DNA from: Acidobacteriaceae bacterium | GTDB lineage: Bacteria > Acidobacteriota > Terriglobia > Terriglobales > Acidobacteriaceae | Assembly: GCA_030044455.1 (NCBI GenBank) | Contig: JASHVU010000782.1 | Span: forward strand, 1-15,674 | DNA length: 15,674 nucleotides | Direction of reading: 5' to 3' | Shown: positions 2,019-15,674 of the stretch, one piece after another | How positions within the stretch are numbered: the stretch's first letter is position 1 | How the letters are laid out: the number at the start of each line of letters is the position of its first letter | Translations under genes and position numbers: made by a program | The notes under the pieces: generated by a model | Seen by the model: the letters and a program-made list of their open reading frames with translations, nothing else | Databases searched by the model: none | What the model was told of the DNA's origin: nothing

Positions 2019-2972
2019 GTGAACGAAATGGCCCACCAGATTTCCAGCCTTGATGAAGCCGCAATCTCTGCAATTGTTCGCCGTGCTGTTGAAGCGCGCC
2101 TTTCGGATTCTGAAGACGAAAGCGACCCCTACAAGTTGTTTCATTCGCGGCGAGCCCAGGCGCTGAAAGAAGAAATTGTTGCGACCGGTAAAAAGCTTTG
2201 GCAGCGCCAGTATGTGGATGGAAATGGCGGCAACATCTCCGCGCGCATCTCTCCGCAATACGTGATCTGCACGCCCACCATGTTGAGCAAGGGCGACCTG
2301 CGGGTGGAAGATTTGTCGCTGGTAGACCTTGAAAACAACCAGATGGTCGGCGACCGCCCCCAAACCAGCGAAGTCACGCTACACCTTGAAATCTACAAAG
2401 CGGTGCCAGAAGCTAAGGCGGTGGTTCATTGCCATCCGCCTTATGCCACGGCCCATGCTGTTGCGGGAGTTCTTCCGCAGGGGAGACTTATTCCCGAATA
2501 TGAGGTTTTTATCGGCACAATTGCGCTGGCCCCGTATGAAACACCCGGGACAAAGGAATTCGCACGCTCCGTGCTGCCCATGGCAAAGAACCACAACACC
2601 ATATTCCTCGCCAATCACGGCATTGTTACTTGGTCAGACACCGTTACGCATGCGGAGTGGAACGCCGAGATCATCGATACCTACTGCAAGACATCGATGA
2701 TCGCGTCGCAGCTGAAAACGCCTCTGCCCGAAATACCGCCCCAGAAGATTGACGAGATTCTGGCCATCAAGCGGTACCTGGGATTCCCCGATGCGCGCCT
2801 CGAAGAGGAAAGGGAATTACCGCAGGCGAAGGGCAACCTGGTTCGAAACCCAGCCAGCACAACCGTCGTTCCGCACCCGTCTATGAAGCGGATGAAGAGC
2901 AGGGAAGAGCTCGAGGAACTGGTGCGGGCAGTAACAGCAGAGTTACTCAACCTGCTGGATCCGAGAGACTGA
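2019..2972 (+). CDS. Class II aldolase/adducin family protein (L-fuculose/rhamnulose-phosphate aldolase-like)
   Basis: 317 residues from GTG 2019; ATG 2028 (residue 4) is an equally possible start and neither has a clear ribosome-binding site. The aldolase domain covers about residues 45-235 and has the family's active site: GNGGN at 68-72, SKGDL at 90-94, the catalytic-type Glu118 in TSE, Zn ligands His137 and His139 in HCH, and His200 in ANHG. Family members cleave sugar phosphates such as L-fuculose-1-phosphate to dihydroxyacetone phosphate and lactaldehyde using zinc. It is about 100 residues longer than the roughly 215-residue E. coli FucA. The extra length forms an N-terminal helix (about 10-28) and, after a Pro/Ser-rich linker, a C-terminal helix (about 293-313). 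Both are short and amphipathic, like microcompartment encapsulation peptides. A fucose-isomerase-like gene follows 129 nt downstream on the same strand, supporting deoxyhexose catabolism. The exact substrate is unproven. Confidence 0.9.
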   Translation: MNEMAHQISSLDEAAISAIVRRAVEARLSDSEDESDPYKLFHSRRAQALKEEIVATGKKLWQRQYVDGNGGNISARISPQYVICTPTMLSKGDLRVEDLSLVDLENNQMVGDRPQTSEVTLHLEIYKAVPEAKAVVHCHPPYATAHAVAGVLPQGRLIPEYEVFIGTIALAPYETPGTKEFARSVLPMAKNHNTIFLANHGIVTWSDTVTHAEWNAEIIDTYCKTSMIASQLKTPLPEIPPQKIDEILAIKRYLGFPDARLEEERELPQAKGNLVRNPASTTVVPHPSMKRMKSREELEELVRAVTAELLNLLDPRD

Positions 2973-3101: not shown

Positions 3102-4754
3102 ATGGCAACGTATACCGTTCCCGAAATCAAAGCAGCGGCGCCGGTCGCGGCGAATGAAGTCCTGCTGGTAGCTAACGGCGATCTTCGCCAATCTGCGAAC
3201 AGAGTGTGCTGGGCCGCGCAGTCTGCCATGGAAGCAAAATTAACGGCAGCTTTTCGAGCCGAGGGAATTACGCTGCGTCGTGCCCACGCGTACGATTCCG
3301 CACTGGAGCACGGGTTCATTTACAACCAGCGCATGGGAATGGATGTGTTCGCAGGCATTCATCCCGATGCGCCACTGGTGGTGGCCGAGTCGGTATGGCA
3401 GTACAGCAATCATCTTCTTGCCGGGCTCGAACACCATCGCGGGCCAATTCTGACCGTTGCAAACTGGTCGGGCCAGTGGCCGGGATTAGTTGGCATGTTG
3501 AATCTCAACGGCTGCCTGTGGAAGGCCGGCGTAAAGTTTTCGACGCTGTGGAGTCTGGACTTCACCGACGAGTTCTTTCTTTCGGGATTGCGCCGGTGGC
3601 TGCGCGAGCATCGCGTCACGCACGACACAAGCCAGGTGCACAAGCTCGACGTAGCCGCATTGTCCAAACCCGAAGCTGAGCTGGGCGCAACTCTGGCCCG
3701 CGCCCTTCGCGCGCGCAAAGCAATCATCGGCGTTTTCGACGAGGGCTGCATGGGGATGTATAACGCCATCATTGAGGACTACCTGCTGAATCCCATGGGC
3801 GTGTACAAGGAGAGGCTCAGCCAGTCGGCGCTGATCGCGGCAATGAGCCAGGTGACGGACGCCGAGGCTGGCCAGATCCGGAACTGGCTCAACGCGAGTG
3901 GCATTGAGTTCCGCACCGGCCCCAATGAAGAGAGCGATCTTACCGAAGCCCAGATCCTGGGCCAGTGCCGCATGTATATTGCTGCCCTGCGCATCGCCAA
4001 CGATTTCGGCTGCGACGCAATCGGCATTCAGTATCAGCAGGGATTGAAAGACATGGCGCCAGCCTCAGACCTGGTCGAGGGGCTGCTAAATAATGTCGAT
4101 CGCCCGGCTGCCTTCAGCACTGCCGGCAAGGAACTTTACGCCGGCAAACCGCTGCCGCACTTCAACGAGGTTGACGAGTGTGCCGGTCTCGATGCGCTGG
4201 TGACCAATCGCGTGTGGAGCGCAATGCACCTCGATCCCGCGACCACCTTGCACGATGTGCGCTGGGGCGAATATTACAAGGGCGACGGCATAGACGGCTT
4301 CATCTGGCTCTTTCAGATCTCCGGCGCAGCGCCGGCCTCGCACTTCACCGGCGGTTATCGCGGCGCTATCAGTGAGCGCCAGCCGGCCATGTACTTCCGG
4401 CTCGGCGGCGGCACGCTCAAGGGGATTTGCAAACCCGGCCCCATCGTATGGAGCCGTGTGTTTGTCGAGGATGGAAAAGTTCACGCCGATATGGGGCTCG
4501 CCGACGCGATTACCCTGCCGGGAGCCGAGACTGAGCGGCGCTGGAAATCCGTCACTCCGCAATGGCCCATCATGCACGTAAAGCTTCGCGGCGTCACGCA
4601 GAATCAGTTCATGGCGCGCCACCACGCCAACCATGTGAACGTGGCCTACGCGCCTGATGCCGCGACCGCCGAAAAGGCGCTCGCGGCCAAAGCTGCCATG
4701 ATGGCCGGGATGGGAATCGATGTTGCGCTGTGCGGAACCACGCCCTGGTCTTAA
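3102..4754 (+). CDS. L-fucose isomerase-like sugar isomerase
   Basis: 550 residues, no signal peptide, so presumably cytoplasmic. It is recognised as a FucI/AraA-fold protein by its C-terminal half. Comparing it from memory with E. coli FucI (591 aa; active-site Glu337, Asp361, His528), the equivalents appear to be Glu356 in FNEVDE, Asp385 in LHDVRW and His511 in HHANHV, in the right order and with similar spacing. The metal-binding and acid/base centre therefore looks intact. The N-terminal half matches FucI only loosely, with Rossmann-like strands such as KAIIGVFDEGCMGMYN at about 206-221. FucI-type enzymes interconvert an aldose and a ketose using Mn2+. The neighbouring class II aldolase would act two steps later, on the ketose phosphate; no kinase gene is seen. 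The substrate could be L-fucose, another deoxysugar or a pentose, and the sequence is far enough from FucI that an exact name would be a guess. Confidence 0.8.
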   Translation: MATYTVPEIKAAAPVAANEVLLVANGDLRQSANRVCWAAQSAMEAKLTAAFRAEGITLRRAHAYDSALEHGFIYNQRMGMDVFAGIHPDAPLVVAESVWQYSNHLLAGLEHHRGPILTVANWSGQWPGLVGMLNLNGCLWKAGVKFSTLWSLDFTDEFFLSGLRRWLREHRVTHDTSQVHKLDVAALSKPEAELGATLARALRARKAIIGVFDEGCMGMYNAIIEDYLLNPMGVYKERLSQSALIAAMSQVTDAEAGQIRNWLNASGIEFRTGPNEESDLTEAQILGQCRMYIAALRIANDFGCDAIGIQYQQGLKDMAPASDLVEGLLNNVDRPAAFSTAGKELYAGKPLPHFNEVDECAGLDALVTNRVWSAMHLDPATTLHDVRWGEYYKGDGIDGFIWLFQISGAAPASHFTGGYRGAISERQPAMYFRLGGGTLKGICKPGPIVWSRVFVEDGKVHADMGLADAITLPGAETERRWKSVTPQWPIMHVKLRGVTQNQFMARHHANHVNVAYAPDAATAEKALAAKAAMMAGMGIDVALCGTTPWS

Positions 4755-4853: not shown

Positions 4854-7800
4854 TCAAAAGATAACCTTCAGCGATCCCTGGAAGATTCTGGCCGCGTTGC
4901 TGGTGGACGAAATCTGTCCGAAGGTCTTGCTCGACAGGGCAGCCGTAGAGTTGCCTAAGCTGCTGGCTCCAGGGTTGTCGAACGATGGGTGGTTGAGGAA
5001 GTTGAATGATTCCAGGCGCACCTGGATGTTCAATCGTTCCTTGATTGGGAACAGGCGCGAAATTTGGATGTCATCCTGAAAGTACATGGGGCCGCTGAAC
5101 GCGTTCCTGCCAAGATCTCCAAAAGTGCCCTGAGCGACCGGATTGGAGCAGCCATTCGCTGTGGTGACGCAGAATGCGCTGGGGTTCAGCCATCCCCGCG
5201 TGGCAGCGGACGCGGGGGCCTTGCCGCCCTGCAAGCTGACCCCGGTTTTCACCTTGACCCCAGGCACCAGGTTCGGACGGTCGTTACCAGTATCGGTAAG
5301 TGATTGGTCCGTTCCATCCGTTACATTGATGGGCGCACCGCTGGTGAGGTGGATCAGCGGAGCAATTTCCCAACCATTGGCTAACCACTTCGAGACACCG
5401 TGGAGCGGAAATGCCGTCGTATAAACCAGCGACGTGTTGAAGACATTCCGGTAATCGGAGCCGCAACGGGCATAATCCAGGTGAATATTGTACGGATCTT
5501 CGAGCGGTGTGCTCGACCAGTCCCCGGACGCGTCAGCCACGTTGAGGCAATGCGACCAGGTGTAGTTGGTCAGCAAGACGAAAGTAGATGACACGCGATG
5601 CTGCAAGGTGAGGACCATGCCGTTGTAATTGGCAAAGCCAATGGTATTCACCAGGATCATGCCACTGCTGCTGCCGCCCGCATAGCCGTCACCCTGGGCA
5701 GGATTCGCTTCAGTCAGCGCAAAACGCGCCCGTTGGTTTCCGGTCACGGAACACGGCTTACCGGCCGCGTAGAGGCTTGGATTGGCCTTATACAACGCCT
5801 CGAAAGCCGGCCCCGTCGTCACCACGGGGCCGCAGCCGCTGAAGTTCGCGCCCCACATTCCGGGCGTGTAGACCGCCGGGTCAATTACGGTTCCGACTGG
5901 CATGTTGGCAGTATGGTTGCCGATATAGTCAATCTGTGCCTGCCAGCCGCGTGGGAACTCATGCTGGACGCTCAGAGTCCACTGCAGCGTATCGGCCACC
6001 TTGAACGGAGAAGCGATCTCAATCCACTCGCCCTGGGATGGGAAGACGGCGGTTGCAGGCGTTGGGACAACCGGTTGCGGGTAGGGGCTGGTGTTTGTGC
6101 CGCCCACTTGGTCGCAGCCATACCCGGTGCCCCCCGTCAGCCAGGGTTCGCTGAAACATACCGGCCCAAGCAGGGTGACGTTGGTGGCAAACGGCGGGTT
6201 CTGGTGGTTGCGGTTGGTGGTGTAGAAGTTCGCCTCGTCGTAAGCCAATTGCAGACCGGCGCGAATGACCGTGTTGCCATTGCCGAATGGATCCCACGTG
6301 GCGCCGATGTTGGGATTGAAATTCCAAATCGGATTGCTGGTGAATGACTTGGAAACTCCGGGATCTCCATAGAAGAAGCTTCCCGCCGGCGCATTGGGGT
6401 AAGTGGAGCTGATCTGGTCGGCAAGAAATGCAGCCATGCTGAAGGTCGTTCCGCGGTTGAATTCATCGCGGGGGATGAATTCAGGCTCCCAGCGAACGCC
6501 ACCTGCCAGTGTCAATCTCTTGCCGGCGTGGTAGGTGTCCTGAATGTACATGCTGGGAACTGGGCCGCGCAGCGCAAGCTGCTGCTCCTTGCTCTGCTGG
6601 AAGTTGTTCATGTCTCCCCAAAGGAAGTCCAGGTTGCCGTTCCCGATGGTGTTTCCTCCCAGCGGTCCGCTTCCGCTGAATTCGCCGTTAAAGCTGTAAT
6701 TCCCGTTGGCCTGGTACGCAGCCACTTCGTTGAAGTGGACCTTGACGAACTCGCCGCCGAGCACCAGCGTGTGATCGCCTTTGATCCAGGTCAGGTCGTC
6801 CGAGGCGCCTTCGTCGTCCACGTTGAAGAATCCGTTCGAACACGTGCCGCAGTACGTGTTAAAGGACGAAATTCCGCCCGTAACTTCGAGTTCCAGGTTG
6901 GTGGGCACTTCGTCGTACTGAGTGATGCCGAGGCTAACGCCGTTGATGCCGGGTGCCGATTGGCGCAGATCGACGCGCTTGGTGCCGGATGCATGGAAAT
7001 TGTTGACCAGGTTCGGCCGCCACGTGAATGCCTCGCCGATCACCGCCGTCTGCACCCGCTCATAGTTGCCCGGAGCCTGAGAGGTGACTAGGATTCCTCC
7101 GTCGGTGCCCCCTTTGAAGAAGAACGACGGAGCCTGATAGCCGTCGATAAAGTAGCGCGCATACATATTGTTCCGCGGGTTGATGGTGTAATCCACCCGG
7201 GTCACAAACTGGTTGTCGAAGGTCTCCGACGGAATTTTAAAGGAGACTTCTCCTGTGCCTGAATCAACGTAATTGGTGGGCATGTAGGCCATCAGGTTGA
7301 GAGCCTGCGCGTTGTAACTTGGCTGCGAAGGATACTTGTTCCCCGGTATCGCAGCACCGGTCAAAGGATCGTAGAGTTGCTGGCCGCCTGCCGATGGAGG
7401 CGGGTTAGTGACCGACCAGTCACCGGTTAGATTCGCCGGGGTGGGAATATACATGGTCAGGGGGTTGGTCGACTGGTCGGCCTTCAGCCGCTGATATCCC
7501 GCGAAGGCAAAGAGTTTGTTCCGCTTGATCGGCCCACCAAATGTACCGCCGAACTGGTTCTGGTGCAGCGTGTCCGGTGTGGTCGAGAAAAAGTTGGTGC
7601 CGTCAATATAGTTGTTGCGGATGAACTCAAAAGCGTCGCCGTGGTATTGATTCGTTCCAGAGCGCGTAACCACGTTGACCAGGCCGCCGGAGTGAGTACT
7701 GCCGCTCTGCGCGCCCAAAGCCGTCGATTCCACGCTGAACTGGCTCACCGCATCGGGAAACGGGAACGGTAGGTTGCCGTTGCCCATGTACTCGTTTTCG

Positions 7801-8429
7801 TCGCCACCGTCCAGCTTCCATTCCGTGGTATTGCCCATGCCTCCGGCCACAGACACGGCAATGGTCTGGTAGGAGTACTTGCTGCCCGTGAAGTCTCCGC
7901 CGGGCGCGGCGCTCGAGCCGCCGGAGAGGGTGATCAGGGCCGTCATCTGACGGCCGTTGAGCGGCATCTCCTCCACCGTCGACTGATCGATGGTCTGCTT
8001 GAACGAGGTGTCTTCGGTCTGCAGCGCCAGGGTGTCGGCATGAACCTCAATTCTGGTGTCTGCAGCGCCGACCTTCAAAACCGGATTGATGGCAATGTTG
8101 CTGCCGACTTCAAGAACAATGCCCGTTTGCACATAGGTCTCAAAGCCGGTGGCCTTGGCCTGCAGGTCATACTTGCCGATGTCGATGTTCGGAAACAGGT
8201 AGACTCCCGAACTGTCGGTTTGCACCGTGCGTTTTACTCCCGTTGAAACGTCAGTAAGAGTGACCGTCGCGCCCGCAACAATCGCTCCGGTGGGATCTGT
8301 GACGGTGCCCTGAATGTTTCCGGCACCAGTAAGTTGCGCGTGCGACGCACCGGCCGCCAGCAGGAAAGCGATCACCAGGCTGGCCTGACAGGCTGCAAAT
8401 CGCCTGAATAGGGGGAAGTTCCGGCTCAT
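4854..8429 (-). CDS. TonB-dependent outer-membrane receptor, Oar-like, with carboxypeptidase-regulatory-like domain
   Basis: 1191 residues from ATG 8429-8427, which has a perfect GGAGG 6 nt upstream. Residues 1-31 form a signal peptide with a probable cut after SHA. Residues about 38-118 form a carboxypeptidase-regulatory-like beta-sandwich beginning GNIQGTVTDPTGA. The plug follows (about 135-250, with MPLNGRQM), then a very large beta-barrel ending in the usual terminal aromatic (KVIF). These receptors take up large substrates through the outer membrane using TonB-ExbBD energy and are abundant in Acidobacteria. The ligand cannot be read from sequence; glycans and peptides are the usual suggestions. 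Presumed outside loops carry closely paired cysteines, for example Cys527/Cys530 in YCGTC. It has its own promoter, lies 246 nt downstream of the multiheme cytochrome gene on the same strand, and converges on the isomerase gene. Transcriptional linkage to the cytochrome is possible but unproven. Confidence 0.93.
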   Translation of the reverse strand: MSRNFPLFRRFAACQASLVIAFLLAAGASHAQLTGAGNIQGTVTDPTGAIVAGATVTLTDVSTGVKRTVQTDSSGVYLFPNIDIGKYDLQAKATGFETYVQTGIVLEVGSNIAINPVLKVGAADTRIEVHADTLALQTEDTSFKQTIDQSTVEEMPLNGRQMTALITLSGGSSAAPGGDFTGSKYSYQTIAVSVAGGMGNTTEWKLDGGDENEYMGNGNLPFPFPDAVSQFSVESTALGAQSGSTHSGGLVNVVTRSGTNQYHGDAFEFIRNNYIDGTNFFSTTPDTLHQNQFGGTFGGPIKRNKLFAFAGYQRLKADQSTNPLTMYIPTPANLTGDWSVTNPPPSAGGQQLYDPLTGAAIPGNKYPSQPSYNAQALNLMAYMPTNYVDSGTGEVSFKIPSETFDNQFVTRVDYTINPRNNMYARYFIDGYQAPSFFFKGGTDGGILVTSQAPGNYERVQTAVIGEAFTWRPNLVNNFHASGTKRVDLRQSAPGINGVSLGITQYDEVPTNLELEVTGGISSFNTYCGTCSNGFFNVDDEGASDDLTWIKGDHTLVLGGEFVKVHFNEVAAYQANGNYSFNGEFSGSGPLGGNTIGNGNLDFLWGDMNNFQQSKEQQLALRGPVPSMYIQDTYHAGKRLTLAGGVRWEPEFIPRDEFNRGTTFSMAAFLADQISSTYPNAPAGSFFYGDPGVSKSFTSNPIWNFNPNIGATWDPFGNGNTVIRAGLQLAYDEANFYTTNRNHQNPPFATNVTLLGPVCFSEPWLTGGTGYGCDQVGGTNTSPYPQPVVPTPATAVFPSQGEWIEIASPFKVADTLQWTLSVQHEFPRGWQAQIDYIGNHTANMPVGTVIDPAVYTPGMWGANFSGCGPVVTTGPAFEALYKANPSLYAAGKPCSVTGNQRARFALTEANPAQGDGYAGGSSSGMILVNTIGFANYNGMVLTLQHRVSSTFVLLTNYTWSHCLNVADASGDWSSTPLEDPYNIHLDYARCGSDYRNVFNTSLVYTTAFPLHGVSKWLANGWEIAPLIHLTSGAPINVTDGTDQSLTDTGNDRPNLVPGVKVKTGVSLQGGKAPASAATRGWLNPSAFCVTTANGCSNPVAQGTFGDLGRNAFSGPMYFQDDIQISRLFPIKERLNIQVRLESFNFLNHPSFDNPGASSLGNSTAALSSKTFGQISSTSNAARIFQGSLKVIF

Positions 8430-8675: not shown

Positions 8676-10382
8676 CTATGGATGGCTGCAATGCTCGGAA
8701 CCGGAAGCGATGGCTAGAGACAGACGCCGGGCGGCATCGTTGTCAGGAGAAAAAAGTAGTACGCGCTCGAGAGTCTGCGCGGCGGCCGCGGCCTGGCCCA
8801 GGCGGCACTGGGCCACGGCAAGATCGATGCCTGCGGCGCTGGCTCCGGGATCATGAGTGAATGCCGTCTGCCACAACGGCAGGGCGGCAGCGAAATCGCC
8901 CGCCTGCGCATCGAGAACAGCAAGGTCGCCGGCCGCCGTCTCGTTATAAGGATCTGCCCGCAGCGCTGCCTGATACTCCAACTTTGCCCGCTCGCGGTTC
9001 CCGCTCTCCTGCTCGAGAAAACCAAGCTCCATGTGCAGCTCCGTGTCGTTTGCCTGGGCAGAGTCGGAGGATTCGGCCTGGAGCAACAGTCGCATCGCGC
9101 GCTCTCCGGCGGGACGATCGCCGCGCAAAGCCAGCTGGGCCCAGGCGATTCCTTCGTCGCGCGCGCTCGGATGGAGGCCGCCAATAGGCTCCAGCTCTTC
9201 GGCGCCAAGTGGGTTTGTGAACGGCTTTGAAGCAATCTCGATGCGATGATCGGTCACCTGCTCGTGCGCAATGTCCTCGGTTTCTTCACGGGGCATGTGG
9301 CAGGAGGTGCAATCGGGGTCCTGCTCATGATGGCCGGATCGAAGACCGGCATGACAGCCTAGGCAACGGCTCCGGTAATAGCTGACGCGATCGTCCGCGG
9401 CCACCGATGCGTGCGGATCGTGACAGGTGGTGCAGGTGAGGCGATCTCCGCTGGCGCGCTTGCAGGCGCTCTCCAACAGCGATTCCCATTGGCTGGTGGC
9501 GCGGCCTCCAGGGCCGGCTCTGCGGCCGTTTTCAAAGTAGACCGCATCATCGAAGAGATTGTCGCCGGGCTGAAAGGCTCCCATCTTGCGCCCCAGCTTG
9601 ACCACGGCCACTTCTCCTTCCAGATGGCATTCGAGACAAACGGAATCGCGGCGGACTGCGTCGAGTTTTGCGGGGTTGAGTATGGGACCTTTTCCATTCT
9701 GCGCCAGATGCTCCGACGGATCGCCGTGACAGGACTCGCAGGTGATGCCTCCGCGTGGAAACGGCGGTCCGGCAAAGTGATTTCTCGCATCGGGCAGAGA
9801 CTCCTTCACGTTGCTCGCATGGCAGTGAAGGCATCCAGGATCGACAGGCAAAGTGAGCGGCATTTCGCGGGTGTCCAGAAAATTGGGAGTCATGTCCCAG
9901 ATATGCTTTTTCGCGTACCAGTTGATGGGGATTTCGTACCAGTAGCCCTCGCGTTCAAAGAGCCAGGTCCGACCGCGTCTGCCGGAGCCAAGATAAAAAA
10001 TCAGCAATTGCCTGCCGTTCAGCTCGCGGCCAGGCGCAGCGTTGGGCCGCTGATAGGAGAGCCACACCTGCCCCTGGCTGAGAAAAACGCGGTAGTGTAT
10101 GCCTGATGTTGCGTGAGTGAAATCGGCGGGGATGAAGCCCTCAGCCGCAGGTCCGCTGGCGTGAGCCATGGGTGTGCGCTTCCAGGAATCGCAGATTTGC
10201 TGATGGCATGGCATGCACACAAGGTCGGGATCTTGTGACTGCGCGTCTGACGGTGTGCCGGCGTTCTGCGATGCTGAGCCGGACAGCGCATTGGCGGCCA
10301 TCCAACAGATTGCCGGCAGCCCGGCAAAAAAAAGCATGAGCGCAGTGAGGCCCGGGGAACTGAAAAAATACCGGCGATTCAT
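8676..10382 (-). CDS. Exported seven-heme c-type cytochrome with C-terminal TPR domain
   Basis: 568 residues from ATG 10382. An in-frame GTG at 10400 would add six residues, but the ATG gives a cleaner signal sequence (MNRRYFFSS then a hydrophobic run). Neither has a good Shine-Dalgarno. Seven CxxCH heme motifs are present (numbered from the GTG): C62, C190, C221, C255, C323, C346 and C364. A heme-free segment of about 120 residues between the first two holds aromatic-rich strands including GSGRRGRTWLFER, which I recall from an uncharacterised cytochrome c554-like/TPR family of Acidobacteria and Planctomycetes. Residues about 417-560 are TPR-like helical repeats for protein contacts. The heme motifs require periplasmic assembly, so the role is probably extracytoplasmic electron transfer; the partner is unknown. 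It is divergent from the redoxin/monooxygenase pair, with 103 nt between starts, and upstream of the TonB receptor. Nitrite or hydroxylamine chemistry is not indicated. Confidence 0.9.
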   Translation of the reverse strand: MNRRYFFSSPGLTALMLFFAGLPAICWMAANALSGSASQNAGTPSDAQSQDPDLVCMPCHQQICDSWKRTPMAHASGPAAEGFIPADFTHATSGIHYRVFLSQGQVWLSYQRPNAAPGRELNGRQLLIFYLGSGRRGRTWLFEREGYWYEIPINWYAKKHIWDMTPNFLDTREMPLTLPVDPGCLHCHASNVKESLPDARNHFAGPPFPRGGITCESCHGDPSEHLAQNGKGPILNPAKLDAVRRDSVCLECHLEGEVAVVKLGRKMGAFQPGDNLFDDAVYFENGRRAGPGGRATSQWESLLESACKRASGDRLTCTTCHDPHASVAADDRVSYYRSRCLGCHAGLRSGHHEQDPDCTSCHMPREETEDIAHEQVTDHRIEIASKPFTNPLGAEELEPIGGLHPSARDEGIAWAQLALRGDRPAGERAMRLLLQAESSDSAQANDTELHMELGFLEQESGNRERAKLEYQAALRADPYNETAAGDLAVLDAQAGDFAAALPLWQTAFTHDPGASAAGIDLAVAQCRLGQAAAAAQTLERVLLFSPDNDAARRLSLAIASGSEHCSHP

Positions 10383-10424
10383 CGGGAGCAAAGATACCAC
10401 GCCATTGCACTTGTCCGTTGGGAC

Positions 10425-10443
10425 CGCACGGGCCGCTCGTGCG
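10425..10443. promoter_or_regulatory. Inverted repeat in the divergent promoter region
   Basis: CGCACG and CGTGCG arms are separated by GGCCGCT, near the middle of the 103-nt gap between the divergent cytochrome and redoxin genes. This is a natural place for one regulator to control both sides. No convincing -35/-10 pair was found on either strand here. GC-rich repeats of this size can occur by chance. Confidence 0.25.
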
Positions 10444-10485
10444 CTGTTTTCGACTTTCCGCAGCTACGTGGTAAAGTTCAGAGCT

Positions 10486-11061
10486 ATGGCATTGCGCCCG
10501 ACAGTGGTCCTGCTTGGCTGCCTGTCGATGTTTGCGCGGGCCGCGGGACCGTTCGGCACGGATCTGAACGGCCACCCGATCGAGCAGATTGCGCCCGCTG
10601 GAACGAAAGCGGTGGTGCTGTTTTTTGTCGCGTCGGATTGTCCAATCTCAAACCGTTACATTCCGGAGATCGAACGGTTGGACCGCAAGTTCGCGCCCCA
10701 GGGCGTGCGCTTCTGGTGGGTGTATCCAAATCCCGGAGACACGGCAGCGGTGGTCCGCCGTCATGATGAGCAGTTCGATCTTCACGCGGATGCAGTGCTG
10801 GACACGGAACAGCGGCTGACGCGCATGGCGCATGTGACGATAACGCCCGAGGTTGCTGTCTTCGTTTCCACAGCGGCAGGGCTCCGCGAACTATACCGGG
10901 GACGGATCGACGACCGTTACCTTGCGCTGGGGCAGGAACGGCCCGCGGCGACGAGGCATGATCTTGAGATGGCTATCGGCGCCGTGCTTGACAATGGTCC
11001 CGTTCTAAAGCCGGGTGGTCCTGCCGTCGGCTGTTCGATTGTGCCTCGCAATGCGCCATGA
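10486..11061 (+). CDS. Exported redoxin (thioredoxin-fold) protein with a single active-site cysteine
   Basis: 191 residues from ATG 10486. The frame continues upstream to 10213, but that extension overlaps the divergent cytochrome gene and lacks a signal sequence, whereas ATG 10486 begins a plausible short signal peptide (about residues 1-20, ending FARAA). A thioredoxin-fold core follows: strand VVLFFVASDCPIS with Cys52, and the conserved cis-proline position TPE (Pro121). The usual CxxC is CPIS, so the resolving cysteine of thioredoxins is absent; a second cysteine, Cys183, lies in the C-terminal motif VGCSI. The protein may therefore act as a peroxiredoxin-like or copper/thiol-handling factor rather than a dithiol reductase; this is inference. 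Its stop codon overlaps the start of the next gene (ATGA), indicating translational coupling, and similar domains are, as I recall, fused to that gene's product in other phyla. Confidence 0.82.
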   Translation: MALRPTVVLLGCLSMFARAAGPFGTDLNGHPIEQIAPAGTKAVVLFFVASDCPISNRYIPEIERLDRKFAPQGVRFWWVYPNPGDTAAVVRRHDEQFDLHADAVLDTEQRLTRMAHVTITPEVAVFVSTAAGLRELYRGRIDDRYLALGQERPAATRHDLEMAIGAVLDNGPVLKPGGPAVGCSIVPRNAP

Positions 11062-13268
11062 GAATTCTGCGCTGCATATCGTTTGCGCTAGTCTGCTGCG
11101 TTTTTGTGACCTGGCTGAATTCGCGCCGCGCGATGCGCGCGGCGGAAATTCCTGTAACCTGGAGCCGGCAGATCGCACCCATCGTTTACCAGAATTGCGC
11201 CACTTGCCACCACCCCGGAGGCAGCGGACCCTTCAGTCTGCTTACCTATCGCGATGCGTACCGTCGCGGGCCGCAGATGGAGGAGGCCACACAGTCGCGC
11301 TATATGCCGCCCTGGCTCCCGGCGCCGGGTTACGGCGATTTTGCGGGTGCACGCCGTCTGAGCGATGAGCAGGTGGCGCTCATTCGCAGGTGGGTGGAGT
11401 CGGGAATGCCTGAAGGCGATGCCTCTGCCGCTCCTGAGCCGCCGCACTATGACGCAACCTGGCAGATGGGAAAACCCGATCTGATCCTTACCATCAATCA
11501 CCCCTACAGGTTGGCCGCGGGGGGAACCGATGTCTTTCGCAACTTCATCCTGCCGTATCCGGACGCGCATACCCATTACATTCGAGCGATGGAGATTCTG
11601 CCGAGCGTGCCCCAGGTGGTGCATCACGCCAACGTGCTGATCGATCGCGCTGCTTCTTTGCGACGCCGTTACCCCGCAGACTGGGAGGATGGAATTCCCG
11701 GTATGGAATTGGAACTCGATGCGGGCAATACCTTTGATCCCGACAGCCATTTTCTTTTCTGGAAGCCGGACACGCCGGTGCTGGAAGAACCCAAAGGGAT
11801 GCCTTGGCGGCTCGATGCGGGCAACGATCTCGTTCTCAATATGCACCTGAAACCGAGCGGCAAGCCCGAGACGATCAGCGCGCAGATCGGTTTGTACTTC
11901 GCTCCCGAGCCGGCGTCAAAACATCCTATGCTGCTCGAGCTTGAAGATGATCGCGACCTGGATATTCCGGCTGGCGACCGGAACTTTGTAGTGCAGGACG
12001 AACTGAAGCTGCCGATTGATGTGGAGGTTTTTGGGATATATCCTCACGCTCACTACCTTGGCAAAGTTCTCGAAGCCTGGGCCATCCTGCCCGATGGCCA
12101 CAAGCAGTGGCTGATCCGCATTCCCAGTTGGGACATTGATCGCCAGTCGGTTTATCGCTATCGCAATCCAGTTTTCCTGCCACGCGGAGCGGTCCTGCAC
12201 ATGCACTACGTCTATGACAACTCGGCGGACAACTTTCATAATCCGAATACTCCGCCCATTCGCGTGCGGGCAGGTAACCGTTCCGTGGACGAGATGGCGC
12301 ATCTCTGGATCCAGGTTCTACCGGTCAATGTACCCAAAGGAAGTCCCGATCCGCGATTGCTGCTGGAGCAGGCTTGGATGGAACATCGCGTGGACAGGAA
12401 TCCTGGAGACTTGATTGCGATGTACAACCTGGCGTCGGCACAGGCCGGGCTTGGACGCTACTCTGAGGCCGCGGATGATTATCGCAATTTGCTGGCCACC
12501 CATCCGGACGACGCGCGCTCTCTTAACAGCCTGGGCGCCGCACTTGAAAATGCAGGAGACTGGCAGGGTGCCGAAGAGGCCTTTACGCGAGCGATTGCCG
12601 CCGGGCCTGACACCTGCGATGCCCAATTCAACCTGGCGGGTCTGGAGCTGAAACGCAGCAAGTTTGCGCAAGCCGAAGAGCAGTTCCGCACCATGCTGCG
12701 CCTGTGCCCCGACGATGCAGAGGCGCACAGCGGGCTGGCGGTGGCGCTCGACGGCGAAGGCAATTCTACGTCCGCACGGGCTGAGTTCGAGAGCGCGCTC
12801 GAACTCGATCCCGCCAGCTTTACTGCGCTTTATCATCTGGGAGAAATGGCGATCGCGTCGGGCTCGCCGCAGCGCGCGGTCGATCTGCTCGGCAAAGCTG
12901 CCGCCGAGCGCCCTGGCGACGTGGACACTCGCGAGCGGCTGGCCATGGCCTTGGCGCAGTTGGGGCGATCCGGCGATGCGCTCACCCAACTGCGCGAAGC
13001 GGTGCGTCTCTCGCCCAACGACGCGAACCCGCACGCGCTGCTTTCACAGGTTTTGGCGAGCGCCGGCAAGTTGCAGCCGGCGATTGAAGAACAGTATCAG
13101 GCGCTCGATTTGCAGCCAAACGATGCCGATGGCTGGAACAACCTGGGCGTGCTGGAGGCACGCATCGGTAAGACGTCCGAGGCGCGCGCGGATTTCCAAC
13201 GCGCCTTGCAGCTCGCACCCAATCATGCGCAGGCGCGCGCCAATCTGACCCGGCTTTCCCAGCAATGA
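11058..13268 (+). CDS. Cytochrome c / PHM-like copper monooxygenase / TPR fusion protein
   Basis: 736 residues; the ATG at 11058 overlaps the redoxin stop. Residues 1-29 look like a signal sequence. A single-heme cytochrome c domain follows, with CATCH at 47-51 and a conserved MPPW at 83-86 whose Met may be the distal ligand. Residues about 140-425 match the two-domain type II copper monooxygenase fold of peptidylglycine and dopamine monooxygenases. HH189-190 and His263 fit the CuH site; His330 and His332 (HAHYLGK) with Met413 (DEM) fit the CuM site. An extra HMH lies at 381-383. Residues 452-723 are exactly eight contiguous 34-residue TPRs. Known relatives hydroxylate C-H bonds using ascorbate as reductant; here the attached heme could supply electrons instead, which is inference. 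The substrate is unknown. It is coupled to the redoxin gene and faces the seven-heme cytochrome gene, suggesting an envelope redox complex. Confidence 0.85.
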   Translation: MRILRCISFALVCCVFVTWLNSRRAMRAAEIPVTWSRQIAPIVYQNCATCHHPGGSGPFSLLTYRDAYRRGPQMEEATQSRYMPPWLPAPGYGDFAGARRLSDEQVALIRRWVESGMPEGDASAAPEPPHYDATWQMGKPDLILTINHPYRLAAGGTDVFRNFILPYPDAHTHYIRAMEILPSVPQVVHHANVLIDRAASLRRRYPADWEDGIPGMELELDAGNTFDPDSHFLFWKPDTPVLEEPKGMPWRLDAGNDLVLNMHLKPSGKPETISAQIGLYFAPEPASKHPMLLELEDDRDLDIPAGDRNFVVQDELKLPIDVEVFGIYPHAHYLGKVLEAWAILPDGHKQWLIRIPSWDIDRQSVYRYRNPVFLPRGAVLHMHYVYDNSADNFHNPNTPPIRVRAGNRSVDEMAHLWIQVLPVNVPKGSPDPRLLLEQAWMEHRVDRNPGDLIAMYNLASAQAGLGRYSEAADDYRNLLATHPDDARSLNSLGAALENAGDWQGAEEAFTRAIAAGPDTCDAQFNLAGLELKRSKFAQAEEQFRTMLRLCPDDAEAHSGLAVALDGEGNSTSARAEFESALELDPASFTALYHLGEMAIASGSPQRAVDLLGKAAAERPGDVDTRERLAMALAQLGRSGDALTQLREAVRLSPNDANPHALLSQVLASAGKLQPAIEEQYQALDLQPNDADGWNNLGVLEARIGKTSEARADFQRALQLAPNHAQARANLTRLSQQ

Positions 13269-13356: not shown

Positions 13357-15674
13357 ATGAAACCCCATGCGCCTCTTGCGTCGCTTGTCGCCCTGAGCCT
13401 GGGGCAGACTCTGCTTCCCGGCCAGAGTCCGCCGGCTTTGCCCGCGGTGCCGGCCTTTGCGCTGGAACAGGGAGCAGCCCTGCACATTGTGCGAGAGGTT
13501 GACCCTGAGCGTCCCTTCTCAGTAATCGGGCCGCGCGGCGCGCTGCTGGGCAGACAGGATGGCAGCTTTGAGGCGTGGCTCTTTCCCTGGAAAATCTTGA
13601 GCAACATGCGCATCCGGGCCGAGATGCAGAATTACCCGGTGCCCATCGACGTGAATCAGTACGCCGGATCGATCGATGTGACGCCCAGCGCAACCATCCT
13701 CACTTACACCCACGCCAATTTCACGATCCGGCAGATCATGTTTGCGCCCCGACAGCCGCAGCAAGGATCGGGCGTGATCGTTCTTTATCAGATCGAAGCC
13801 ATACGGCCGATGACGCTCACCTTCAGCTTTACGCCGCAGATGCAGCGAATGTGGCCTGCGTCATCTGACCCTCAGACTTCTCCGGAGTGGGTGCCGACGC
13901 AAACAGGTTTGGGCAATGCGTCGTCGGGTTTTTATGTTCTGCACGAGAACTTCCCCGATCATGCCGCGGCGCTCGCCATACCCACCGCCGAACCGGGTAT
14001 CCTTCCGCCGTATCAGGAACGCCCACAGGTTTGGCCGCTGGAGTTCGTGCTGCATTTCGATCCTGCGAGAGACGCGAATACGTTCTTTCCCCTGCTCATC
14101 ACCAGGGCAGACACGCAGCAGGCCTCGACGCGCGAAGCGCTGGCACACAGCCTGGCTGAACTCGACGCCGTGATTCCCACTCTCTATGCGGACAACGCGA
14201 AGTACTTTCACGATCTTCTCGCCAAGCATACGAGCATCGAAACGCCCGACAGCGATTTGAATGCGGCTTTTTCCTGGGCAATCGCCGCTATCGATCAGCT
14301 TCGCGTAGAGACTCCGGAGCGCGACGGCATGGCGCTGACCGCGGGCTTTGTCGGATCCGGCGACTCCACGCGACCCGGCTTTGGATGGTTCTTCGGCCGT
14401 GACGCGCTGTGGACGCTCTACGCCGTCAATAGCTACGGCGACTTCGGGACATCCAGGCAGGAAATTGATTTTTTGCTGGCTCATCAACGCGCCGACGGCA
14501 AAATCATGCACGAGTACGCGCAGACTGCAAATCTCGTCGACTGGCAGTCGCTGCCCTATGAGTATGCCGCGGCCGATTCCACGCCGCTGCTGCTGATGGC
14601 GGTGAATGACTATCTGAAGATCAGCGGCGACGCCGATTTCGTGCGCTCGCATTGGGCCGCGTTCCAGCGCGCCTGGGATTTCGAAACATCGCATGTTTCA
14701 AGTGACGGCATCTACAACAACACCCAGGGCACAGGGTGGGTAGAAAACTGGTTTCCCTCGCTGCCGTATCAGGAAATCTATCTCGCGTCGCTCGATGAGC
14801 AGGCCAGTCTCGCGTTTGCAAATCTTGCGCGCACCTGTGACCATGCCGACCTGGCGGATGGTGCCAACGCCCGTGCCGCCCGCATCGGGCAGGCAATTGA
14901 GAAGGAGTATTCCGATCCCGCCTCCGGTTTCTACGCTTTCAGTATCGATCCACACGGCGTGCCCGACAATACGCCGTCGATCTTCCCGGCGGTTGCGTGG
15001 TGGGACGGCAGCTTTGCGCTCGATCACCCTGAAGGCATGATGCAGCGCTGGGCGTCAAGCGAGTTTTCGACCGACTGGGGCACGCGGGACATCAGTGATC
15101 AAGTCAGCTTTTACGATCCCATCAGTTATCACCAGGGAAGCGTGTGGCCGCTTTACACGGGCTGGGTTTCACTTGCTGAGTACCGCGCCGGCCGGCCGCT
15201 CTCAGGTTACGCTCACTTGATGCAGACTGCCGACTTGTCCTGGTCGCAGGACCTCGGCTCGGTCACCGAACTGCTCTCCGGGCAGTTCTTTCAGACTCTG
15301 GGGCGCAGCACGGCGCATCAGCTCTGGTCTTCGGCCATGGTGATCTCGCCCGTTCTCCGCGGCCTTTTCGGTCTGGAGTGGAATGCCGCAACTCAAACGT
15401 TGACGGTGAATCCCCATCTGCCCGCTGACTGGGTCAGCTCAACCATTCGCCGCATTCCCCTGGGCAGGTCCTCCGTCGATCTCACTTTCACCCGGCAAGG
15501 GCAGAAACTGTTGGTTGAAGCCGGTGGATTCGGCGCTTCCGCGCTGCATCTTGCCACCGCTGCTGCCGGTGCAAAACTGAGCGGAAGCACGCTCGAAATT
15601 CCGCTGCCCGCGGTCGAGGTAGCATGGTCGCATCGTCTTCCGGATTTTGGCGCCAAAACAGAGCAGCTGAAAGT
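13357..15674 (+). CDS. Exported glycoside hydrolase, glycogen-debranching-enzyme-like (alpha/alpha)6 family, 3' end missing
   Basis: The frame opens at ATG 13357, the first start after an in-frame TAA at 13330, and has no stop before the window end; 772 residues are visible. Residues 1-22 form a weak signal-like sequence (LASLVALSLGQ), so export is likely but not certain. The N-terminal part to about residue 275 is a beta-sandwich, followed by an (alpha/alpha)6 barrel. The barrel has signatures of amylo-alpha-1,6-glucosidase (COG3408) and related families: FGWFFGRDALW with Asp349, an ADSTPLLL segment, VENW with Glu463, YHQGSVWP beginning at Tyr591, and Glu638 in VTELLSG as a candidate second acidic residue. 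A C-terminal beta domain starts at about 690. Such enzymes hydrolyse alpha-glucosidic or related bonds; the substrate here is unknown. Export would be unusual for true glycogen debranching. It lies 88 nt after the TPR gene and may be separately transcribed. Confidence 0.8.
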   Translation, partial: MKPHAPLASLVALSLGQTLLPGQSPPALPAVPAFALEQGAALHIVREVDPERPFSVIGPRGALLGRQDGSFEAWLFPWKILSNMRIRAEMQNYPVPIDVNQYAGSIDVTPSATILTYTHANFTIRQIMFAPRQPQQGSGVIVLYQIEAIRPMTLTFSFTPQMQRMWPASSDPQTSPEWVPTQTGLGNASSGFYVLHENFPDHAAALAIPTAEPGILPPYQERPQVWPLEFVLHFDPARDANTFFPLLITRADTQQASTREALAHSLAELDAVIPTLYADNAKYFHDLLAKHTSIETPDSDLNAAFSWAIAAIDQLRVETPERDGMALTAGFVGSGDSTRPGFGWFFGRDALWTLYAVNSYGDFGTSRQEIDFLLAHQRADGKIMHEYAQTANLVDWQSLPYEYAAADSTPLLLMAVNDYLKISGDADFVRSHWAAFQRAWDFETSHVSSDGIYNNTQGTGWVENWFPSLPYQEIYLASLDEQASLAFANLARTCDHADLADGANARAARIGQAIEKEYSDPASGFYAFSIDPHGVPDNTPSIFPAVAWWDGSFALDHPEGMMQRWASSEFSTDWGTRDISDQVSFYDPISYHQGSVWPLYTGWVSLAEYRAGRPLSGYAHLMQTADLSWSQDLGSVTELLSGQFFQTLGRSTAHQLWSSAMVISPVLRGLFGLEWNAATQTLTVNPHLPADWVSSTIRRIPLGRSSVDLTFTRQGQKLLVEAGGFGASALHLATAAAGAKLSGSTLEIPLPAVEVAWSHRLPDFGAKTEQLK

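What the first reader, a model, noticed from the sequence alone, without database searches (positions are those of the whole stretch)
8676..13268. Divergent envelope redox module: seven-heme cytochrome-TPR, redoxin and heme/copper monooxygenase-TPR
Three apparently exported redox proteins share one 103-nt divergent start region: a seven-CxxCH cytochrome with a TPR tail on one side, and a translationally coupled redoxin plus cytochrome-copper monooxygenase-TPR protein on the other. A TonB receptor lies just downstream of the cytochrome. Two different redox proteins both ending in TPRs suggests assembly on shared partners. I know no described pathway with this set of parts. The inference is an envelope copper hydroxylation system fed by multiheme electron transfer, perhaps acting on a substrate brought in by the receptor.
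Basis: partly seen in the sequence, partly recalled or inferred. Interest (0 to 1): 0.72.

Follow-up and report, generated by a model that had tools for sequence, protein, structure and literature searches.

The report
Heme-wired copper hydroxylase with redoxin partner
A soil acidobacterium carries an uncharacterised, apparently exported enzyme that joins a copper hydroxylase like the one that finishes animal peptide hormones to a built-in cytochrome and a TPR scaffold, encoded beside the same redoxin in nearly all close relatives examined and here placed next to a seven-heme cytochrome and an outer-membrane receptor-like gene.

The parts
8676..10382 (-). Seven-heme c-type cytochrome with TPR tail (568 aa)
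   Evidence: Seven CxxCH; TPR_19/TPR_2, Cytochrom_c3_2, Cytochrome_C554 Pfam hits; 47-row alignment A4: hemes 2-7 invariant, heme 1 in at least 90%; AF2 pLDDT 78 with a beta region between heme 1 and heme 2, a confident TPR tail and poorly predicted stretches at 289-301 and 362-394
8679..9092 (-). TPR tail of the cytochrome (residues about 431-568)
10383..10485 (.). 103-nt divergent intergenic region
   Evidence: Sequence; both ends conserved in 7 divergent loci, window included
10390..10401 (-). CGTGGTATCTTT, extended -10-like element just upstream of the cytochrome ATG
   Evidence: Pattern CGTGGTANNNTT (chosen after seeing it), 2 matches in window, shuffles mean 0.04, 1 of 200 shuffles reached 2
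10467..10478 (+). CGTGGTAAAGTT, the mirrored element just upstream of the redoxin ATG
   Evidence: alignment
10486..11061 (+). Redoxin (191 aa), thioredoxin fold, DCP...GC type, apparently exported
   Evidence: AhpC-TSA/Redoxin Pfam hits; nearest solved 2ywi E 1e-8, 2cvb E 8e-5 with both Cys positions aligned; D51, C52, P53 in 57 of 57 and C183 in 55 of 57
11058..13268 (+). Cytochrome c - PHM-type dicopper monooxygenase - TPR protein (736 aa)
11196..11210 (+). Heme c site C47-A-T-C50-H51 (sixth ligand probably M83 of MPPW)
   Evidence: C47, C50, H51, M83 identical in 64 of 64 rows
11622..11627 (+). CuH ligands H189, H190
   Evidence: 64 of 64; aligned to the HH of PHM
11844..11846 (+). CuH ligand H263
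   Evidence: 64 of 64; aligned to the QVH of PHM
12045..12053 (+). CuM ligands H330 and H332 (HAH)
   Evidence: 64 of 64; aligned to the HTH of PHM
12294..12296 (+). CuM ligand M413 (DEM)
   Evidence: 64 of 64; aligned to the DEM of PHM
12396..13265 (+). TPR tail (residues about 447-736)
4854..8429 (-). Associated outer-membrane beta-barrel with CarboxypepD_reg domain (TonB-receptor-like)
   Evidence: PF25183 567 bits, PF13620 72 bits; same class within 4 kb of the monooxygenase in 17 of 48 loci
13357..15674 (+). Associated glycosidase-like gene, runs off the window
   Evidence: MGH1-like_GH 30 bits, GDE_C 26 bits; relatives in 8 of 80 related loci

Best explanation
The core is a two-gene unit: a PHM-type copper hydroxylase with its own electron inlet, plus a dedicated redoxin, both outside the cytoplasm. 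Shown by sequence and model: the 736-aa protein has a PHM/DBH fold with both copper sites complete, preceded by a c-type heme domain with a conserved Met and followed by a TPR solenoid; the redoxin gene is its constant neighbour in the window's clade and is fused to it in one genome. Inferred: electrons reach the heme domain from a periplasmic carrier, pass to CuH (H189, H190, H263), and CuM (H330, H332, M413) activates O2 to hydroxylate one C-H of a substrate in the periplasm, so the heme replaces ascorbate. Inferred: the redoxin (C52, C183) serves the enzyme itself, most likely by thiol or Cu(I) chaperoning of its copper and heme sites. In this lineage the pair lies in an outer-membrane uptake island (receptor-like barrel, seven-heme cytochrome-TPR, glycosidases); the seven-heme cytochrome is the likeliest electron feeder here, and the substrate is likely part of, or attached to, a sugar compound handled by that island. 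The TPR tails may hold these proteins together at the envelope.
Against: No activity, copper or heme content is measured. The cytochrome is missing near many redoxin-PHM pairs: within 6 kb it is present in 9 of 31, and ubiD-linked pairs stand without it, so it cannot be the only donor. In the family sample G152 has PHM-TPR without redoxin and G153 only fragments of both. The unit is patchy: none of the 4 other same-genus genomes has it. In the half of the tree outside the window's clade, 19 of 34 rows lack the adjacent redoxin. Across the phylum 7 of 10 redoxins over 80 bits lie beside a PHM; in G050 one precedes an FG-GAP protein instead. Barrel proximity is only about twice what the own genome's 73 barrel matches would give by my rough estimate. 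Glycosidase counts are inflated by close kin.
Confidence: 0.55

Rival explanations
1. Two independent modules that merely touch. The redoxin-monooxygenase pair is one system; the seven-heme cytochrome belongs to a barrel-TPR-CRTAC1 island with another task (for example electron export or oxidation of another substrate). The divergent arrangement in the window is a product of deletion, and the cytochrome does not feed the monooxygenase.
For: Cytochrome without PHM-TPR in 13 of 128 genomes. Of 16 cytochrome loci away from a PHM gene (L151-L166), 12 have the barrel (I estimate 5-6 by chance) and 10 have TPR or CRTAC1 genes. In L168 the order is cytochrome-CRTAC1-TPR-TPR-barrel, then divergent redoxin-PHM, so the window looks like a shortened island. 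Cytochrome tree: PHM-less and unlinked rows are scattered among linked rows.
Against: Co-occurrence 16 of 22 versus 13 of 128; same-strand cytochrome-redoxin-PHM order in six loci (L046, L050, L053, L065, L087, L102) and divergent order in six plus the window; cytochrome and PHM distances correlate, r 0.84, n 16, 0 of 500 permutations, although common descent alone can do this.
Confidence: 0.3
2. The PHM-like protein stores or delivers copper (or senses it) rather than hydroxylating anything; the redoxin and cytochromes are copper- or redox-homeostasis parts.
For: Copper ligands alone do not prove turnover; a thioredoxin-fold partner with two conserved Cys would suit copper handling.
Against: Both sites of a hydroxylase are invariant, with invariant positions H415, W417, Q419 next to the CuM Met in 64 of 64 rows, which suggests a fixed substrate; a fused heme inlet has no evident use in storage.
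Confidence: 0.08
3. The redoxin is a thiol peroxidase-like guard that removes peroxide made by uncoupled turnover, not an assembly factor. (This competes with one step of the best explanation only.)
For: AhpC-TSA/Redoxin Pfam match; that PHM-type enzymes can leak peroxide is recalled.
Against: The conserved Cys sits in D-C-P-x-S with no second motif Cys; the other conserved Cys is C-terminal, as in 2ywi and 2cvb. That a peroxidatic Cys would align to the second motif position is recalled.
Confidence: 0.2

Closest known systems
Peptidylglycine alpha-hydroxylating monooxygenase (PHM) and dopamine beta-hydroxylase (DBH)
   Different: Fused N-terminal cytochrome c and C-terminal TPRs; PHM Arg240 aligns to invariant Tyr328, and Asn316, Tyr318, Met320 align to invariant His415, Trp417, Gln419 (PHM numbering and the roles of these residues are recalled), so the substrate probably differs.
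Thioredoxin-fold proteins with one motif Cys and a C-terminal Cys (2ywi, 2cvb; the class name PRX-like 1 is recalled)
   Same: Sequence match and both Cys positions.
   Different: Apparently exported and genetically bound to a copper monooxygenase; the solved ones are called hypothetical or probable in the listing.
Lytic polysaccharide monooxygenase with cellobiose dehydrogenase cytochrome (recalled)
   Same: Works alike in outline: secreted copper monooxygenase fed by a cytochrome domain, in a sugar context.
   Different: Unrelated copper protein (recalled); here the cytochrome is on the same chain and the copper sites are of PHM type.
Multiheme c-type cytochromes (NrfB, decaheme DmsE-like)
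   Same: Weak sequence matches over the central hemes.
   Different: Seven hemes, a beta region between heme 1 and heme 2 and a TPR tail.

Membership tests
PHM/DBH copper monooxygenase superfamily (fold and metal sites) | PHM fold (two beta-sandwich domains) | tested here: met
PHM/DBH copper monooxygenase superfamily (fold and metal sites) | CuH by three His and CuM by two His and one Met | tested here: met
   64 of 64 rows, aligned to PHM
PHM/DBH copper monooxygenase superfamily (fold and metal sites) | O2-dependent two-electron hydroxylation | not testable with these tools
   needs an enzyme assay
Pfam Cu2_monooxygen / Cu2_monoox_C as curated | Score over the gathering cut-off | tested here: not met
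   No match for the window protein at E 0.01; among 18 rows, 5 match PF03712 and 2 match PF01082 at E 0.001. Not filed under these Pfam entries
Peptidylglycine hydroxylase proper | Arg240-type carboxylate-binding residue | tested here: not met
   Aligned position is Tyr328 in 64 of 64 rows; the role of Arg240 is recalled. Not filed as a peptide-amidating enzyme
Thiol peroxidase (peroxiredoxin) | Peroxidatic Cys at the second Cys position of the thioredoxin motif | tested here: not met
   Motif is D-C-P-x-S with no later motif Cys (the rule is recalled)
TonB-dependent receptor (4854-8429) | Outer-membrane barrel family | tested here: met
   PF25183 OMP_b-brl_4, 567 bits against cut-off 30
TonB-dependent receptor (4854-8429) | Plug domain and TonB box | tested here: inconclusive
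   No plug match by Pfam at E 0.01; TonB box not examined

The most novel reading that the evidence does not exclude
An ascorbate-free, heme-wired copper hydroxylation system at the cell envelope of Acidobacteriota: a PHM-type enzyme with its own cytochrome inlet and a private redoxin, which in some lineages is plugged into a sugar-uptake island (receptor-like barrel, multiheme cytochrome-TPR, CRTAC1 and TPR proteins, glycosidases) and oxidises the imported glycoside or its aglycone there: an oxidative counterpart of a polysaccharide utilisation locus.
Probability: 0.25. Interest if true: 0.8.

Novelty: new variant of a known kind. Interest (0 to 1): 0.55.

Why it matters
PHM-type copper hydroxylases are known mainly from animals, with ascorbate as donor (recalled). 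Here a large protein group (6643 of the 8000 scored candidates match the cytochrome-PHM part) has the same active site with a joined cytochrome and, in one clade, a constant redoxin. Where the listing shows a source's name it refers to TPR, TadD or mono/diheme cytochrome, so the copper chemistry is not visible in the names. If the heme replaces ascorbate, this gives a clean system in which to test how the two distant coppers of this enzyme class receive electrons, and it adds an oxidative step to how abundant soil bacteria may use organic matter.

Tried and rejected
Chance neighbourhood: rejected for redoxin-monooxygenase; partly open for barrel and glycosidases. Three-gene obligate set: rejected. 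Peptide amidation: rejected on pocket residues. Shared TPR partners: the two tails match at 31% over 106 residues, as TPRs do in general. Plasmid-borne copies: no match at E 1e-10 in 72,556 plasmid records. Fold of the heme region of the cytochrome: the rows listed were to its TPR tail, so the heme and beta part stays untested. Papers: searches listed nothing on this system; I saw passages of PMC3174227 and PMC5900883, and search listings only for the rest; only open-licence PMC papers are covered. Planctomycetota and Verrucomicrobiota were not tested: the one genome-collection scan confirmed 574 stretches and kept the best 80, nearly all titled as Acidobacteriota. L060 and L063 are titled Rhodanobacteraceae and L064 Verrucomicrobia; they fall inside the acidobacterial clade of the tree, so I suspect mislabelled bins. 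Six of the 80 loci (L036, L056, L073, L093, L100, L106) were left out of the 74 for having under 700 nt upstream; L100 and L106 do show the redoxin. L070 and L082, with partial monooxygenase matches, count among the 74 without redoxin but were left out of the tree. The first barrel count came out as zero through a column error and was redone. Greedy ORF calls hid some genes (the cytochrome in L157, the redoxin in L171 and L172), so absences read from those maps are soft. The family sample and the named loci overlap (for example G268 with L069, G180 with L083), so their counts are not independent.
Full report
WHAT IS THERE. The window comes from a fragmented genome (G000, 4.72 Mb, 813 contigs, 76.5% complete). 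Its nearest named relatives are bins labelled Terracidiphilus, Acidobacteriaceae and Sulfotelmatobacter. The cytochrome gene (8676-10382, minus) has seven CxxCH motifs and a TPR tail; the redoxin gene (10486-11061, plus) overlaps the next gene as ATGA; the third gene (11058-13268, plus) encodes 736 residues. The divergent ATGs are 103 nt apart.

THE REDOXIN IS ITS PARTNER. Of 80 named loci from the genome collection, 74 have at least 700 nt upstream of the monooxygenase domain; 53 of these have the redoxin directly upstream on the same strand, 2 have it nearby on the other strand, 19 show none. On a tree of 73 rows the clade that holds the window has the redoxin in 39 of 39 rows; in the other part 15 of 34 have it. 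In 150 family genomes (the own one included), 46 have some PHM match, and the PHM-TPR type is in 22 (two incomplete: G153 interrupted, G171 at a contig end); none of the 4 other same-genus genomes has it. Redoxins over 80 bits are in 20 of 150 genomes and, by coordinates, all 20 are beside the PHM-TPR gene on the same strand. G152 has the gene without a redoxin match. In 149 genomes of the phylum, 28 have a PHM match and 10 a redoxin over 80 bits; 7 of the 10 are beside a PHM gene by coordinates. Of the other three, G008 has no PHM match, G024 has none among the ORFs called around the redoxin, and in G050 the redoxin precedes a 942-aa FG-GAP protein. G001 has redoxin, cytochrome c, PHM and TPR in one chain of about 830 residues. 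Conserved in 57 aligned redoxins: D51, C52, P53, R57, P60, P121 in all, C183 in 55. Both Cys positions are also in the solved relatives 2ywi and 2cvb.

THE CYTOCHROME IS A LOOSER PARTNER. Matches of at least 290 bits occur in 16 of 22 family genomes with PHM-TPR and 13 of 128 without (Fisher 2e-9; kinship not corrected, cut-off chosen after seeing the list, own genome included). G239 counts by a 313-bit match on another contig; its copy beside the PHM gene is in two pieces of 255 and 135 bits. Of the 16, ten have a copy on the PHM contig within 10 kb (my reading). Among the 80 named loci the cytochrome is divergent from the redoxin in six (L031-L035, L091), directly upstream on the same strand in six (L046, L050, L053, L065, L087, L102), and on the far side in L048, L058, L083 and, in pieces, L062. 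In L037, L038, L043 and L069 it starts to appear about 10 kb upstream. The cytochrome tree scatters PHM-less and unlinked rows among linked ones.

THE ISLAND. Of 16 cytochrome loci away from a PHM gene (L151-L166), 12 have the CarboxypepD_reg barrel gene, where I estimate 5-6 by chance, 10 have TPR or CRTAC1-type genes, and 7 the CRTAC1 type (CRTAC1 means FG-GAP plus UnbV_ASPIC by Pfam in four representatives). L168 shows the fullest order: part of a five-heme cytochrome, TPR, seven-heme cytochrome, CRTAC1, TPR, TPR, barrel, then divergent redoxin and PHM-TPR. The window looks like a shortened form. Within 4 kb of the monooxygenase, 17 of 48 loci have the barrel, 11 the CRTAC1 gene and 11 the cytochrome. 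The own genome has 73 barrel matches, some of them pieces of one gene, and 20 UnbV_ASPIC matches, so barrel proximity is about twofold and CRTAC1 about fivefold over a rough density estimate. Glycosidases (GH13 alpha-amylase family in 12 loci, the window's own MGH1/GDE_C-like gene in 9, trehalase in 6, GH130 in 5) occur in 22 of 81 loci, counting the window; the own genome has 3 alpha-amylase matches and 2 of the window type. Close kin inflate these counts. In L041, L044, L049 and L055 the redoxin-monooxygenase pair stands near ubiD without cytochrome, barrel or glycosidase label.

HOW IT MOST LIKELY WORKS. Shown by sequence and model: active-site anatomy, fold, heme inlet, bond to the redoxin gene. 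Inferred: electron path heme to CuH, O2 chemistry at CuM, redoxin as assembly or copper-thiol helper, seven-heme cytochrome as feeder in this lineage, sugar-linked substrate. The rival that cytochrome and barrel form another module that merely abuts this one is serious (0.3).

PROMOTERS. CGTGGTANNNTT stands in mirror image just before both ATGs (10390-10401 minus, 10467-10478 plus); 2 matches in the window against 0.04 expected, and 1 of 200 shuffles reached 2, for a pattern chosen after seeing it. Both ends are conserved among seven divergent loci. The spacing suggests extended -10 elements and near-leaderless messages, and I see no ribosome-binding site; this is inference. The scan for sigma-70 hexamer pairs found no promoter there. 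In the related loci GTGGTANNNT is followed within 18 nt by ATG in 15 of 35 cases, these loci included, against 7-32% for shuffled hexamers.

NOVELTY. The parts are known kinds; the combination of a cytochrome-fused PHM with its own redoxin was not described in anything my searches listed. I rate it a new variant of a known kind.

Noticed in passing
window 10390-10401 (-) and 10467-10478 (+): Mirrored CGTGGTANNNTT elements, extended -10-like, a few bases before both divergent ATGs; suggests leaderless messages.
   Followed up: partly
L168, L151, L153, L162, L169: Recurrent acidobacterial island: CarboxypepD_reg barrel, TPR proteins of about 350 and 590 residues, CRTAC1-type FG-GAP/UnbV_ASPIC protein, multiheme cytochrome-TPR.
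   Followed up: partly
   Followed up: no
protein P0052 (1072 aa): Tandem cytochrome c-PHM / cytochrome c-PHM / TPR protein, two such units in one chain.
   Followed up: no
L084:1522-3435 (-): Protein with seven CxxCH that combines a multiheme part, a PPIC-type prolyl isomerase domain and TPRs.
   Followed up: no
L173:3620-7058 (-): The same redoxin type followed by a 942-aa FG-GAP protein instead of a PHM, with a CRTAC1-type gene divergent.
   Followed up: partly
L041, L044, L049, L055: Redoxin-monooxygenase pair near a ubiD decarboxylase gene, without cytochrome or barrel label.
   Followed up: partly
window 2019-2972 and 3102-4754 (+): Class II aldolase and a protein with a weak, below-cut-off L-fucose isomerase C-terminal match, side by side; no match over 120 bits in the 80 related loci.
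   Followed up: partly
G153:C155:6914-7842 (-): Interrupted relatives of both monooxygenase and redoxin side by side, apparently decaying together.
   Followed up: no
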